DNA of 64,000 nt, taken from IMG/VR virus record IMGVR_UViG_3300027908_000023, positions 1-64,000 of that record; one strand, written 5' to 3'. The stretch's first letter is position 1. Every line of letters begins with the position of its first letter. Below the pieces are notes generated by a model. The model was not told where the DNA came from, made no database searches, and saw only the letters and a program-made list of their open reading frames with translations. Below, piece by piece: positions 15,740-21,123 of this stretch. The translations under genes and the position numbers were made by a program. Source of the stretch: a virus.

Positions 15740-15810
15740 GGCTTTGCAACGGAATGGGCTTTGCAACGGAATGTCGCCGCGCAACGGAATGCGGCGGGGC
15801 GCAACGAAAT
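15740..15810. repeat. Left terminal repeat with iterated GCAACGGAAT
   Basis: The 16-base terminal repeat is followed by a second full copy at 15757-15772 and shorter copies at 15781-15790 and 15801-15810 (one mismatch). Confidence 0.8.
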
Positions 15811-15831
15811 GCGGAAGCCATCCGGTTCACC

Positions 15832-18447
15832 TCAGAAGTGCATGGTAGCGAGATAGCGGTCGAGCATGTCATCCAGCTTCTTCTTTGCCTGTTCCAGCTG
15901 CTCCCTCTTCTCCAGGAACGTTGTGAATCGCTCGGCTGTGGCCTTCTGTGCCTGGACATCAAAACTCCCATCCGGCTTGACCGGAATCGGCACGGCAAGA
16001 ACCCTCATCTTCGCCAGGGAGGCGCGGAAAGCCCGGTTGAAACTCGATTCAAAGCGCAGGACATACAGCGCGTGAAGCATGTATTCCGGGACGATCGCGG
16101 GGTCTATGATCTGAATCACCCCGCAATGATCGGTGGTGGCGAAGGGAGTTTCGGGCTGGATCAGTTTGTAGTTGAAGAGGCTATTGTCGATACTCCAGAG
16201 GATGGCAGGATGGCTGAATTCCTCGATATTGCTCTCCTCTACATACCCCATCGGCGCAACGGCATTAGCGCTGTAGAGCGGAATTTTCGTGTCGTCGTCG
16301 GTCACGTCCTTTTTCAAGACTCGCTTGCCGATGAACAGATTGAAGAAATCCTGATCGCTCAGCTTCACTTCCCTGGTTGGCCTCTGCCGCAGAGGATTAG
16401 CGGATACGAATGATCCGTAATCGGCCAACAGCGTGTTGAATTCGGTCAGCAAGGAAGTTACCTGATCCGAGTCGGCATATTCGGCAGACTCTTCCGCGCC
16501 GGCAGCGATCCGCTCAGCGCGGGTCCACCAGCGATCAACGACCCAATGATCTTCATCTCGAAATCGCTGGATGTCTTGAATCTTGCATCGTCCCGTCCCG
16601 CTTTCAAGCAATTCCTTGGCAGCCGCGCCGACTGCGGAAAAAATCTTGTACCGCCCTTCCATCTCGGGCAAGTCGTCTTCTTCTATGTCCTCTCTCTTTA
16701 CACTCCTCAATCGCTCGCCGATGTTCGTGATTAGGTAGGTGAAAACCGGCCGAGTCTGAACGTCGGCAGCATCCTGCTTCTTGGTCAATGCAAGGATATA
16801 GGTATGCTCGTTATTGGCGTAGAAGGTCTTGAGTGGAAGGGTAATGATGGCGTCAAGGTAGCACTCTCGGAGCATGTGGTTCCGCAGCTTCTTCCCGCCG
16901 ACCCGTCCGAGGATGCCGTCAGGAACGATGATAAACGCGCGGCCTCCCTGTTTGAGAGACTTGATGATCCACTCAACAGACAACCCCTCAAGCCCCAGCG
17001 CGTTGATCGGGTATTCGTTCATCGTGCGTGCGGATCGCTTGATCTCCTCCTTGATGATGCTCGACCCACGGGTGACATAGGGCGGGTTGCTCAAAATCAG
17101 ATCGTACTTCTGTTCTTCGTCCTTGATGATATGCCCGAAGGTCCCGAGGTTGTCCTTGAAGAGGGTGAACGTCTCGTTGAATGCCCGCGCGAATTCCTGG
17201 GAGCATTGTGGGTTGGCGAAGAGGAGTTCTGCCAGATAGATCAGCATGTTCGCCTTGGCGAGGATTATGGTCCGCTCCTCATCTCTCTCAAACCCCTTGT
17301 CGAATCCGTTCAAGACGAAAGGCGGAGAAATCACGCCACGATTACCGGGCTTATAGCAGGCGTGCATACTCTCATTCATGTTGAGTATTTCGAGCGGGAA
17401 GCCACCAACCCCGCAATAGGGATCGCAGATCCGCTTGCCGGCGTACTGGAATGTCGGAAGATCGATACCGGCCATGCGAATAATCGACTGGATGACCTTG
17501 CGAGGCGTGAAATACTGCCCCAATGCCTCAACTTCTTGGTTAAGAAAACTCTCGTAAATCCTCGTTTTGAACTGCTTGTCGATCTTCGTCAGCCCGCCGA
17601 ACTCTTCGGCGTACTTATGAAGGTGCTCCAGCGAGCGGCGGAACAAGACGGCTTGAGAGAGATTCGCCTCGCCGTTCTCGGCGACAAAAATGGTCCCGTT
17701 TATGATAGTCGTGCCGTCTTGTGCCGGAGGGAAGAGTTTATAGATCCTCTCCCGCGAGTTCCGCGCATAAAAATCAAGGGCATCTTCGGGGTCCGCCACC
17801 GCCTTCTGGCGAATGCGGTTGAACGCGATGTCTTCTGGCAGAACCTTCAAGTCGCTCAGAAACTTGAAGATGAACAACTCGACCACGTTGTACAGGCACT
17901 TGACGGGAGATTTCCCGGTCGCCACCCAGATCGTTTGCCATAGCCGGGTCGCCAGCGGCATCGGGTCGATAAGTTTCGGTTGCCGAACGGTGGAATTCGT
18001 CGCTGTGATCGAGGCGTCTACTTCGTCAAGCAGGTGCTCAAGCGCCGTCGCGTTCTTCACACCGAAGGCATGAAAGACTGTCCGCAACTCGTTGCCACTG
18101 ATGTCCCGAATACGCTCGCCGTTCATGGCGTTGATCCAGAACGTCTTCGTGGAATCCGTCACGATGAAAATCTTCGACAGCGCGCGGGCAACGTCGATTT
18201 CTTGAGTGATCGCCTTCTGTATCGCCTTCTCCGAGCCGAGTTCCTTCGGCTGCTTGTACTCGACAACCGCCTTAATCTTGCCGTGATGGACGACCAGGCC
18301 ATCGGGCTTCTTGGCCTCAATCTTCGAGTAATCCTTTTTGGGAATGATTCCGGCGTCCTTGAGTTGCCCGAGGGTGGTGCTGCCCAGCCTGTAGTAGGTG
18401 TACTTGCCAAGCTGGAACGGGATGGTCTGAAGCAACTCTTCGCTCAT
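15832..18447 (-). CDS. Single-polypeptide restriction-modification enzyme, type IIG-like
   Basis: An 871-residue protein. Residues about 45-66 hold KPDGLVV ... VVEYKQ, a PD-(D/E)xK nuclease core like HsdR N-termini. Motif I DPYCGVGGF (about 341) and motif IV NPPYV (about 454) mark a gamma-class N6-adenine methyltransferase. The last 180 residues (KIPLYSANAVAPMGYVEE ... FNRAFRASLAKM ... LEKREQLEQAKKKLD) resemble one HsdS target-recognition domain with its coiled coil. Nuclease, methylase and specificity in one chain fit type IIG enzymes that cut beside the recognition site. ATG overlaps the regulator's stop. Recognition site unknown. Confidence 0.85.
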   Translation of the reverse strand: MSEELLQTIPFQLGKYTYYRLGSTTLGQLKDAGIIPKKDYSKIEAKKPDGLVVHHGKIKAVVEYKQPKELGSEKAIQKAITQEIDVARALSKIFIVTDSTKTFWINAMNGERIRDISGNELRTVFHAFGVKNATALEHLLDEVDASITATNSTVRQPKLIDPMPLATRLWQTIWVATGKSPVKCLYNVVELFIFKFLSDLKVLPEDIAFNRIRQKAVADPEDALDFYARNSRERIYKLFPPAQDGTTIINGTIFVAENGEANLSQAVLFRRSLEHLHKYAEEFGGLTKIDKQFKTRIYESFLNQEVEALGQYFTPRKVIQSIIRMAGIDLPTFQYAGKRICDPYCGVGGFPLEILNMNESMHACYKPGNRGVISPPFVLNGFDKGFERDEERTIILAKANMLIYLAELLFANPQCSQEFARAFNETFTLFKDNLGTFGHIIKDEEQKYDLILSNPPYVTRGSSIIKEEIKRSARTMNEYPINALGLEGLSVEWIIKSLKQGGRAFIIVPDGILGRVGGKKLRNHMLRECYLDAIITLPLKTFYANNEHTYILALTKKQDAADVQTRPVFTYLITNIGERLRSVKREDIEEDDLPEMEGRYKIFSAVGAAAKELLESGTGRCKIQDIQRFRDEDHWVVDRWWTRAERIAAGAEESAEYADSDQVTSLLTEFNTLLADYGSFVSANPLRQRPTREVKLSDQDFFNLFIGKRVLKKDVTDDDTKIPLYSANAVAPMGYVEESNIEEFSHPAILWSIDNSLFNYKLIQPETPFATTDHCGVIQIIDPAIVPEYMLHALYVLRFESSFNRAFRASLAKMRVLAVPIPVKPDGSFDVQAQKATAERFTTFLEKREQLEQAKKKLDDMLDRYLATMHF

Positions 18448-18650
18448 TTGTCATTTCCCCGTTTTTCGGCATAGTCGTCACGATGCCGTTCCACATATTC
18501 CGCCAATGCCGCGTCTATCAGCTGCGCCCGCGTCGGTTTCGGCCGCATCCCCTCGCGGATCGCGTCCAGCGCGGCTACGGTAACAGGATCAATCCTCGTG
18601 TAGATCACGATTTTGGCGTCGGATTGCGGACGCTCCTTTGGCTTGCTCAT
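18444..18650 (-). CDS. Ribbon-helix-helix regulator of the restriction-modification operon
   Basis: A 68-residue protein starting MSKPKERPQ, with a beta strand (IVIYTRIDP) and two helices (TVAALDAIREGM; TRAQLIDAALAEYVERH), the MetJ/Arc fold. It overlaps the enzyme gene by ATGA, so it is likely an autoregulator controlling enzyme dosage. A promoter (18657-18684) places the transcription start at or next to the ATG, suggesting a leaderless mRNA. Confidence 0.75.
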   Translation of the reverse strand: MSKPKERPQSDAKIVIYTRIDPVTVAALDAIREGMRPKPTRAQLIDAALAEYVERHRDDYAEKRGNDK

Positions 18651-18656
18651 GCCAGC

Positions 18657-18684
18657 AGTGTAAAGGAATGTCAAGCGCTGTCAA
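18657..18684 (-). promoter_or_regulatory. Promoter and direct-repeat operator of the regulator
   Basis: On the minus strand TTGACA (18684-18679), 16 bases, TACACT (18662-18657). TTGACA is repeated 10 bases on, forming a direct repeat that overlaps the -35 region, a likely operator. Confidence 0.6.
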
Positions 18685-18723
18685 GAAAAAACTCCTGAGA
18701 AATCCAACCTACCAACCTGTACG

Positions 18724-18773
18724 TTTCTTAACGACTCTGTACAATGTAGGCCGCGTTAAGAGACGTTAAGAAA
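18724..18773. repeat. Inverted CGTTAAGAAA repeats before the transposase
   Basis: TTTCTTAACG (18724-18733) faces CGTTAAGAAA (18764-18773), with an extra CGTTAAG at 18754-18760. TACAAT at 18740-18745 between them could be the transposase -10. Likely a regulatory site. Confidence 0.5.
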
Positions 18774-18795
18774 ACACCAGCAACAGGAGCCTATC

Positions 18796-20118
18796 ATGAA
18801 TGCACGCGAAGAGCGCGGACTGGTCATCGCGGCGGTCTGCAAACTCAACCCCACTCCCGAAGGTTGGCTTGTCCCCTCGCAGTCCGGCGAGCGCATCTAC
18901 ACGGTCGATGTCAAGAAGCAGACCTGCACTTGCCCGGACCATGAGGCGGGGCACAAGTGCAAGCATATCTACGCCGTGGAATTCACCCTCAAGCGCGAGG
19001 TAAACAGCGACGGCACGATAACCGACACGAAGAGCATGACCTTCACCGAGAAGGTAACATACCGCCAGGACTGGCCTGCCTACAATCTCGCGCAGAGCAT
19101 CGAGAAAGACCGTCTTCAGGAACTCCTGCGCGACCTTTGCCGGGGAATCGAGGAGCCGGCGCACGACGGCATGGGCCGCAAGCCGCATCTGGTCAAGGAT
19201 TGCATCTTCGCGATGGTGTTCAAGGTCTATTGCACGCTGAGCAGTCGGCGCTTCTCCAGCGACCTCCGGGAGGCGCACGCACGCGGGTACGTCAGCAAGG
19301 AGATCCCTGGCGTGAAGGTGTGTGCCTTCATGGAGAACGCGGCCTTCACGCCGCTGCTCAAGAGCCTGATCTACCAGAGCAGCTTGCCGCTCCGCATCGT
19401 CGAGACGAAGTTCAGCATCGACAGCAGCGGTTTCTCGACCAACAAGTTCATGCGCTGGTATGACGAGAAGTACGGCGTCACCCGGCAGAAACACGCCTGG
19501 GTCAAGACGCATATCATGTGCGGGGTCAAGACCAACATCGTGACGGCTGTTCGCATCCTGGACAAGGACGCGGGAGACTCTCCGCAGTTCATCCCTCTCT
19601 TGAAGGACACCCGCAAGGGTTTCACGATCGGGGAAGTCAGCGCGGACAAGGCATATGCGAGCCTGGACAACTTCGAGGCGGTCGCGGAGTGTGGCGGGAC
19701 TGGCTTCATGGCCTTCAAGAAGGACGCAACGGGTGGCGTGGGCGGCATGTTCGAGAAGATGTTCCACTATTTCCAGTTCCGCAAGGACGACTTCCTGAAG
19801 CACTACCACCTTCGCTCCAACGTCGAATCCACCTTCAGCATGGTCAAGCGAAAGTTCGGGGACCACGTTCGCAGTAAGGGCGAAGTCGCAATGACGAACG
19901 AGGCACTGTGCAAGTTCGTCTGCCATAATCTCTGCTGTCTGATTCAGGAGCAATGCGAACTCGGCATCGAGCCGATCTTCTGGACGGACGGGCAATCGGT
20001 TAAGCTGGTCGCTGGCGATGGGGAGGCTGCGTTGCCGGCGCGGCTGGCGTTGCCCGCGCCGAAAAAGCCGGACCCGCCGCCGCCCCCGTCGTTCGGGAAT
20101 GTGATCTATGTCGGTTGA
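18796..20118 (+). CDS. DDE transposase with SWIM zinc finger
   Basis: A 440-residue transposase of the 4.4 kb element. N-terminal SWIM finger CTCPDHEAGHKCKH (about 49-62), then an RNase H-like core with Asp in FSIDSSG (about 208), Asp in SADKAY (about 283) and Glu in RSNVEST (about 344). The C-terminal tail is Pro-rich. The family resembles IS4/IS5-superfamily transposases with an added SWIM domain. Upstream AGGAG supports the start. Confidence 0.85.
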   Translation: MNAREERGLVIAAVCKLNPTPEGWLVPSQSGERIYTVDVKKQTCTCPDHEAGHKCKHIYAVEFTLKREVNSDGTITDTKSMTFTEKVTYRQDWPAYNLAQSIEKDRLQELLRDLCRGIEEPAHDGMGRKPHLVKDCIFAMVFKVYCTLSSRRFSSDLREAHARGYVSKEIPGVKVCAFMENAAFTPLLKSLIYQSSLPLRIVETKFSIDSSGFSTNKFMRWYDEKYGVTRQKHAWVKTHIMCGVKTNIVTAVRILDKDAGDSPQFIPLLKDTRKGFTIGEVSADKAYASLDNFEAVAECGGTGFMAFKKDATGGVGGMFEKMFHYFQFRKDDFLKHYHLRSNVESTFSMVKRKFGDHVRSKGEVAMTNEALCKFVCHNLCCLIQEQCELGIEPIFWTDGQSVKLVAGDGEAALPARLALPAPKKPDPPPPPSFGNVIYVG

Positions 20119-20136
20119 AACGGAACTTGTTGCGGC

Positions 20137-20178
20137 GCAACGGAATATGTTGATTTTGGCATATTCCGTTGCAAAGCC
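20137..20178. repeat. Right terminal repeat
   Basis: The complement of the 16-base terminal repeat at 20163-20178, plus GCAACGGAATATG (20137-20149) facing CATATTCCGTTGC (20160-20172), so the end can itself form a hairpin. Confidence 0.8.
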
Positions 20179-20187
20179 ACGCGGGCT
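20179..20187. repeat. Target site duplication, right copy
   Basis: ACGCGGGCT, matching 15731-15739. Confidence 0.85.
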
Positions 20188-20209
20188 GGACACCGTTCTT
20201 GACACGAAA

Positions 20210-20600
20210 AAGAAAAACAAGCCGGCGGGGGTCGAACCCGCATCCGCTCACTTAGAGTCAGCGGATAAACCCAGACGCTTCGGCCGTGGCAGGCGGCCAT
20301 CGCCCAGGAGAACCGCGATAGGCGGTTCGCCCTTCCTCTGCCAGTCGCTCATGATTTGGAGATCGCACGGGGCGTCGAACCCCTCAGCTCAGGTTACCAT
20401 CACGGCCAGCCTTCGTGCCCCCAGGTGCCCCTGGGGGGTTGCGAGAGGCATCGCAAGCCTCTCTGGCCGACCGTTACTCTACCCTCACCTAGCCGGCTGG
20501 CGCGGATGCGATTCCGCTTTTAGCCGGCGGGAACCTTGCGGGTTCCCACCCATCCACGCATGGGCATGATGCGACCGTTTGTTTCCTCCGGGCGATTGCT
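20210..20600 (-). ncRNA. Structured non-coding RNA, tRNA/tmRNA-like 3' end
   Basis: About 390 bases without a coding frame, starting at promoter copy 20600-20656 and ending in a T-rich run (TTGTTTTTCTTTTTC) at 20206-20220. Stems seen: GCCGGCT/AGCCGGC around GCGGA/TCCGC; GAGAGGC/GCCTCTC with a 7-base loop; CCCCCAGG/CCTGGGGG; GAACCGC/GCGGTTC. The 3' end has a T-arm-like hairpin GCGGG-TTCGACC-CCCGC preceded by a helix with loop CTCTAAG, which would put CUA at the anticodon position. A second TTCGACG hairpin lies near 20375. It may be a tmRNA, a tRNA with an odd fold, or a new RNA. Confidence 0.55.
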
Positions 20601-20656
20601 CCTACCTTAGTTATTCGCTGCTCACGAGCGAATCTTTGGGCGATGGTTGTTTTTTC
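20600..20656 (-). promoter_or_regulatory. Repeated promoter-like element driving the ncRNA
   Basis: AGCGAATAAC core with a TTCGCT/AGCGAA stem; no protein gene follows, only the structured RNA. Confidence 0.55.
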
Positions 20657-21038
20657 ATCTCGCCAGCAACGCAACCCCATCAGCAGATCCAAGTACGGCC
20701 GGACGGTTGCGATGGTCCACGGTCAGCCGCGCCTCGGGAAACTTTTCCACGAAGTCCGCGACGGCAAGCCACTTCGCCTTGACTCGCCCGCACTCGTCTT
20801 CCGTGAACGTCTCAACTTGTTTCCATCTGCTTCCTGCCAGCCGTGGCAGCACCTCGAAGCGCTCCACCTTGGCTCGCTTGGCCTCCTGATAGGCCGCGAT
20901 GCTGGCGTCCAGGTCGGCCTGCGCTTTTGCATCGCGCTAGGCCTGTCCGGCCGCATTGCCGCTTGGCCGATCTGTTCCGTCATCGCGCGCCTGGGCGTCC
21001 GCCGCGATGCTACGCTGTCCGCCGATTCCGAGAGACAT
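20655..21038 (-). CDS. Ala/Gln-rich protein interrupted by one in-frame UAG
   Basis: A frame from ATG 21038 (MSLGIGGQRSI) meets UAG at codon 34 (20937-20939) and continues in the same frame for 93 more codons to 20655. Composition is continuous over the stop: ...NAAGQA, UAG, RDAKAQADLDASIAAYQEAK. The second part has no good start and ribosome site at its beginning. Either recoded UAG, a recent nonsense mutation, or a sequence error. Confidence 0.55.
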
Positions 21039-21067: not shown

Positions 21068-21123
21068 CTCTGTAGAGTAGTTCGCTGGCCGGGAGTCTCC
21101 ATTTGATCAGCCAGCGAATTTCC
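21068..21123 (-). promoter_or_regulatory. Repeated promoter-like element
   Basis: Core GCGAACTAC; 9-bp stem TTCGCTGGC/GCCAGCGAA. Confidence 0.6.

What the first reader, a model, noticed from the sequence alone, without database searches (positions are those of the whole stretch)
20210..20656. Promoter-driven, roughly 390-base structured RNA with a tRNA- or tmRNA-like 3' end
A promoter-family copy faces a gene-free stretch full of strong hairpins that ends in a T-rich run, the layout of an RNA gene. The 3' end (GCGGATGCGGG TTCGACC CCCGCCGGC) closely resembles tmRNA 3' domains and has a perfect T-arm. The helix before it carries loop CTCTAAG, with CUA at the anticodon position. Whole-length folding does not fit a plain tRNA.
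Basis: partly seen in the sequence, partly recalled or inferred. Interest (0 to 1): 0.76.

Follow-up and report, generated by a model that had tools for sequence, protein, structure and literature searches.

The report
Orphan folded RNA before phage mini-gene
A phage promoter makes a short RNA in which an unusually strongly folded 220-base block, with ends resembling a transfer RNA, sits between the ribosome-binding site and the start of a tiny gene; it is not a real tRNA or tmRNA, no relative is known, and its role is untested.

Summary
The promoter copy belongs to a family of about 35, all on the minus strand; this copy is among the weakest. Every other copy I examined leads within 24-91 bases into a Shine-Dalgarno (SD) site and start codon. 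Here the SD (20589-20585) is in place but no start follows. Instead comes a GC-rich 220-base block (20576-20357) folding as a compact multi-branched structure (z = -5.1; third most structured locus of the phage), then ATG and a 34-codon ORF (20352-20248). ARAGORN defaults and Rfam find no tRNA or tmRNA, and the phage uses the standard code. A better tRNA-like format frames the block itself: 7-bp acceptor-like helix, T-arm, CCA, once in the genome against 0.024 expected. No homologue was found, so there is no covariation. Best reading: a structured leader or insertion separating SD from AUG, like T4 gene 25/38 "split" ribosome-binding sites but ten times longer. Decayed DNA is the main rival.

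The parts
20599..20640 (-). Copy of the phage promoter family (consensus TTAAAT-N15-GCGAATAACC.TA.AGAGA); core GCGAATAAC at 20618-20610, degraded -35-like box CCAAAG
   Evidence: PWM of 27 copies: this copy 18.4 bits, best + strand site 5.8; about 35 copies, all minus strand
20585..20589 (-). Shine-Dalgarno GGAGG at the position usual for this family, but with no start codon at the usual distance
   Evidence: Comparison of 35 leaders
20357..20576 (-). Folded block of 220 nt, 66% GC (genome 57.8%): closing helix, four further arms and a T-arm-like hairpin with almost no linkers; ends in NCCA
   Evidence: z = -5.13; nearly all helices of 5 bp or more have mean pair probability 0.94-1.0; single copy, no homologue
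20570..20576 (-). 5' strand of acceptor-like helix GGTCGCA (partner TGCGATC 20367-20361)
   Evidence: 7 pairs including one G-U
20357..20384 (-). T-arm-like hairpin AGGGG-TTCGACG-CCCCG (4 of 5 pairs, A-G mismatch), acceptor 3' strand TGCGATC, discriminator T, CCA
   Evidence: T-arm + 7-bp acceptor + NCCA: once in the genome, mean 0.024 in 2123 shuffles, 0 in 0.5 Mb of other phage DNA
20402..20474 (-). Longest arm: ACGGTCGGCC/GGCTGGCCGT stem carrying two hairpins (GAGAGGC/GCCTCTC and CCCCCAGG/CCTGGGGG)
   Evidence: pair probabilities 0.99-1.0
20248..20352 (-).
   Evidence: coding score 3.8, inside the range of real genes; no homologue
20207..20241 (-).
   Evidence: consensus scan (2 found, 1.1 expected, so weak on its own)
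20655..21038 (-). Gene just upstream, with its own family promoter at 21084 and SD; interrupted by an in-frame TAG at 20939-20937

Best explanation
The locus is a short phage transcription unit read on the minus strand: promoter (core 20618-20610), SD (20589-20585), a 220-nt folded block (20576-20357), a 34-codon gene (ATG 20352, stop 20248) and a terminator-like hairpin with U-tract (20241-20207). The block lies between the SD and the start codon. Its closing 7-8-bp helix shortens the SD-to-AUG path from 232 nt to about 16 nt, so translation of the mini-gene most likely depends on whether the block is folded: a split ribosome-binding site, with possible extra control by pairing of UCUCC (just 3' of the helix) with the SD. 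Shown: the order of parts, the unusual fold strength, the standard leader that appears when the block is left out, and the tRNA-like format of the block's ends. Inferred: that it is transcribed, that the ORF is translated, that the block arose by insertion, and that it regulates translation.
For: 33 of 34 other promoter copies lead to SD + start at 24-91 nt (usually 43-53) with SD-start spacing 6-11; the 34th (62009) also shows an ATG about 48 nt on behind a GGGGAT motif that the scan did not list. This copy alone has the SD without a start. Leaving out the block gives GGAGGAAACAAA|TCATGAGC: core-to-ATG 42, SD-to-ATG 9, the family norm. Block fold z = -5.1, main helices at or above 0.94 probability; GC in the top 2% of genome windows. 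The ORF scores like real genes. T4 genes 38 and 25 are precedents: intervening RNA structure cuts SD-AUG spacing from 22 to 5 nt and from 27 to 11 nt (PMC3014915).
Against: No homologue anywhere, hence no covariation and no test of conservation. The promoter copy is among the weakest of the family. The ORF is short and orphan. The folded SD-AUG distance (about 16 nt) is longer than the family's 6-11, and bridging 220 nt has no precedent known to me. Pairing of UCUCC with the SD would lower, not raise, initiation. No expression data.
Confidence: 0.42

Rival explanations
1. The region is neutral or decaying DNA: debris left beside a mobile module (type I methyltransferase + IS5-like transposase, about 15.74-20.19 kb), with a GC-rich palindrome-rich stretch that folds well but does nothing.
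For: Weak promoter copy; direct neighbour of a module flanked by GCAACGGAAT repeats; upstream gene carries an in-frame TAG; no homologue.
Against: Fold strength is 3rd of the whole genome, and the two stronger loci are simple long inverted repeats; helices are intact with few mismatches; SD, ATG and the tRNA-like format coincide with the block's ends.
Confidence: 0.28
2. An independent small structured RNA with a tRNA-like acceptor/T-arm domain, cut out of the transcript by RNase P (5' end at 20576) and 3' trimming to CCA (20357), acting in trans; the downstream ORF is incidental.
For: Acceptor-like 7 bp + T-arm + NCCA once in the genome, expected 0.024; acceptor/T-arm minihelix with CCA is the minimal RNase P substrate (established knowledge); compact multi-branched fold.
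Against: Discriminator U, one T-stem mismatch, no canonical D or anticodon arm, no Rfam or ARAGORN support; format was looked for after the fact.
Confidence: 0.2
3. A genuine tRNA, amber-suppressor tRNA or tmRNA.
For: Perfect T-arm at 20241-20225; CUA triplet; sub-threshold ARAGORN tRNA-Pyl at 90% of the cut-off; the gene just upstream has one in-frame TAG.
Against: No default ARAGORN or Rfam hit; no CCA; acceptor of the called tRNA has two mismatches and a weak D-stem; chance gives similar calls; TAG ends 15 of 81 coding-like ORFs, so the code is standard; the ARAGORN 'tag' AESHPRQPAR lies inside strong hairpins and does not end like a proteolysis tag.
Confidence: 0.05

Closest known systems
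Split ribosome-binding sites of phage T4 genes 38 and 25 (PMC3014915)
   Same: RNA structure lies between SD and AUG and shortens their distance when folded
   Different: T4 spacers are 22-27 nt with one hairpin; here 232 nt with a multi-branched block; no experimental support here
tmRNA (RF00023) and permuted tmRNA (RF04321)
   Same: acceptor-like helix, T-arm and CCA around a large insert instead of an anticodon arm
   Different: no covariance-model match, no tag-like reading frame in a free loop, no pseudoknots, no tmRNA D-domain consensus
GOLLD, ROOL and OLE large structured RNAs (PMC12286853)
   Same: GOLLD and ROOL are large elaborately folded RNAs of phages and prophages without known function, often near tRNA islands
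   Different: no Rfam match; much shorter; no tRNA genes in this phage
Translational riboswitches (SD-occluding leaders)
   Same: multi-helix junction in a 5' leader whose closing region can pair with the SD (GGAG/CUCC)
   Different: here the SD lies upstream of the junction; no known aptamer matched

Membership tests
tRNA | recognised by tRNA models at their normal cut-offs | tested here: not met
   ARAGORN default 0 in the whole contig, including intron settings on 20001-20700; RF00005 absent
   after 20225: CGGCTTG TTTTT, no CCA; only full partner TGAGCTG with three G-U pairs
tRNA | anticodon arm not part of a coding sequence | tested here: inconclusive
   the CUA loop is inside a coding-like 34-codon ORF, whose translation is unproven
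tmRNA / permuted tmRNA | covariance-model match | tested here: not met
   RF00023 none at E up to 1 in G000 and 22 related records; RF04321 10.2 bits against 47
tmRNA / permuted tmRNA | acceptor helix + T-arm + CCA | tested here: inconclusive
   present around 20576-20357 with one T-stem mismatch and a U discriminator; expected by chance 0.024 per genome
tmRNA / permuted tmRNA | tag reading frame with hydrophobic C-terminus in an open loop | tested here: not met
   only candidate AESHPRQPAR, buried in helices
GOLLD / ROOL / OLE | match to the Rfam covariance model | tested here: not met
   no gathering-level match and none up to E = 1 in the window
Split ribosome-binding site (T4 gene 25/38 type) | SD and AUG too far apart in sequence, with stable structure between them | tested here: met
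   SD 20589-20585, ATG 20352, spacing 232 nt; closing helix probability 0.94
Split ribosome-binding site (T4 gene 25/38 type) | folded distance in the functional range | tested here: inconclusive
   about 16 nt folded; family norm 6-11 nt; T4 cases 5 and 11 nt
Split ribosome-binding site (T4 gene 25/38 type) | breaking the structure lowers translation | not testable with these tools
   needs a reporter assay
Phage attachment site in a tRNA/tmRNA 3' end | integrase gene in the same phage and identity to a host tRNA/tmRNA end | tested here: not met
   no Phage_integrase (PF00589) in the contig; the 3' end matches no genome contig at 27-28 nt; serine recombinases not tested

The most novel reading that the evidence does not exclude
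A tRNA-mimicking, multi-branched RNA block of 220 nt has been inserted between the Shine-Dalgarno sequence and the start codon of a phage gene, and initiation either bridges the folded block or is switched by RNase P-type recognition of its tRNA-like ends.
Probability: 0.13. Interest if true: 0.7.

Novelty: new variant of a known kind. Interest (0 to 1): 0.36.

Why it matters
If the block really sits in a working gene leader, it would be an extreme case of ribosomes starting translation across a large folded insert, or of a tRNA-like domain built into an mRNA leader. Either can be tested directly with one reporter construct. If it is debris, the case still shows how easily T-arm-like terminator hairpins and codon triplets imitate tRNA features in GC-rich phage DNA.

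Tried and rejected
Amber recoding with a suppressor tRNA: rejected, TAG ends 15 of 81 coding-like ORFs and only one in-frame TAG on the gene strand was found by the survey. Attachment-site remnant of a host tmRNA: no tyrosine integrase and no exact 27-28-nt match in genome contigs. The 91% match in Methanoculleus viruses is just the T-arm of a tRNA-Thr. Homologue hunts without result: phages, plasmids and E. coli BLAST, pattern scans of IMG/VR, a covariance model of the single sequence over 27 virus records, neighbouring proteins. The promoter pattern gave 4 IMG/VR contigs, about the number I estimate by chance; they were not followed beyond the model search. The 89-kb contig G001 is not a close relative. 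MAFFT of the region against L005 is meaningless. Several low-cut-off ARAGORN models discarded as chance.

Full report
Setting. The window is part of a 98,536-base virus record, a tailed phage by its terminase, portal, DnaB and endonuclease VII genes. Nearly all coding-like ORFs are on the minus strand, and the finding is on that strand too. The code is standard: among 81 coding-like ORFs, 47 end in TGA, 19 in TAA and 15 in TAG. No tRNA or tmRNA gene is found anywhere in the contig.

Promoter. A weight matrix from 27 copies (TTAAAT-N15-GCGAATAACC.TA.AGAGA) finds about 35 sites between 8.8 and 72 kb, all on the minus strand; the best + strand site scores 5.8. The copy at 20617 scores 18.4: clearly a member, but among the weakest, with an intact core and a degraded -35-like box (CCAAAG).

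What normally follows. In 33 of 34 other copies a Shine-Dalgarno sequence and a start codon follow 24-91 nt (usually 43-53) after the core, with 6-11 nt between SD and start. The one that the scan missed (62009) has GGGGATAAACGCC-ATG at about 48 nt (sequence). At 20617 the SD GGAGG is where it should be (20589-20585), but the start codon is missing.

The block. Instead there is a 220-nt stretch, 66% GC against 57.8% for the genome (top 2% of windows), that folds alone with z = -5.1. In a scan of 894 minus-strand windows it is the third most structured locus; the two stronger ones are simple long inverted repeats. The predicted fold is a closing 7-8-bp helix holding four arms and a T-arm-like hairpin with almost no linkers; nearly all helices of 5 bp or more have mean pair probabilities of 0.94-1.0.

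The mini-gene. Eight bases after the closing helix comes AAATC-ATG and an ORF of 34 codons (20352-20248). Its codon score (3.8) lies in the range of known genes of this phage (0.9-10.3) and above same-strand wrong frames. Leaving out the block joins GGAGGAAACAAA to TCATGAGC, giving core-to-ATG 42 and SD-to-ATG 9, the family standard. The flanks share CAAA, which would fit an insertion with a short target duplication, but this is weak evidence because I chose the boundaries.

'CTCTAAG with CUA' is the end of the ORF: GAC TCT AAG TGA. 'GCGGG TTCGACC CCCGC' is a hairpin 7 nt before a T-rich tract, thus terminator-like (weak by itself). T-arm-like hairpins with G53-C61 occur 6 times in the genome against 5.2 in shuffles. 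There is no CCA, and the only full acceptor partner uses three G-U pairs. ARAGORN reports a tRNA-Pyl(CUA) only at 90% of its cut-off, with two mismatches in the acceptor and a poor D-stem; at that setting the genome gives 7 tRNA calls and shuffles about 2. Low-cut-off tmRNA calls are at chance level (290 in the genome, 348 in shuffles at 70%).

A better tRNA-like format. The block itself begins GGTCGCA and ends AGGGG-TTCGACG-CCCCG-TGCGATC-T-CCA: acceptor-like helix, T-arm and CCA in the right order and spacing. This combination occurs once in the genome, 0.024 times per shuffled genome (2123 shuffles) and not at all in 0.5 Mb of other phage DNA. This is suggestive, not proof: I searched for it after seeing it, the T-stem has an A-G mismatch, and the middle is nothing like a tRNA.

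Homologues. None: BLAST in phages, plasmids and E. coli, IMG/VR patterns, genome contigs for the 3' end, and a covariance model of the single sequence over 27 virus records. The only hit (Methanoculleus viruses) is the T-arm of a normal tRNA-Thr. Without relatives, covariation cannot be tested, and the fold rests on thermodynamics alone.

Interpretation. The best-supported reading is a short mRNA with a large structured element between SD and AUG. Folding reduces the gap from 232 to about 16 nt, as smaller structures do in T4 genes 38 and 25 (PMC3014915). The UCUCC next to the closing helix can pair with the SD (mean probability 0.59), so the element could also switch initiation off. Rivals are neutral debris beside the mobile methyltransferase/transposase module, an RNase P-processed tRNA-like RNA, and, with little support, a true tRNA or tmRNA. 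I place 0.42 on the leader model.

Verdict. Interest is moderate: a clean, testable oddity with no relatives.

Noticed in passing
window 20937-20939 (minus strand): The gene just upstream (21038-20655), with its own family promoter and SD, has an in-frame TAG after 33 codons followed by 93 strongly coding codons; nonsense mutation, sequencing error or readthrough.
   Followed up: partly
window 15740-20190: Apparent mobile module: N6-DNA methyltransferase gene (15832-18447, minus), IS5-like DDE transposase with SWIM domain (18796-20118, plus), bounded by several GCAACGGAAT repeats, including a perfect 13-bp inverted pair at 20137-20172.
   Followed up: partly
L004 14374-14477 (contig about 94873-94976): 47-base inverted repeat (94% complementary, 10-base loop) of TTTTGCATTTTAGATTTTGC type, the strongest hairpin of the phage; a related stretch lies near contig 87870.
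   Followed up: no
L003 13310-14125 (contig 76809-77624): tRNA-His guanylyltransferase (Thg1) gene in a phage that has no detectable tRNA gene.
   Followed up: no
window 8842-64000 and on to contig 72406, minus strand: Family of about 35 phage promoters with a -35-like TTAAAT and an extended GCGAATAAC core, each in front of a gene; a ready set for defining a phage-specific transcription factor or polymerase.
   Followed up: partly
L004 3519-4937 (contig 84018-85436): IS605-type OrfB/TnpB gene whose 3' end coincides with a strongly folded window (84261-84480, z = -4.7), probably its guide RNA.
   Followed up: no
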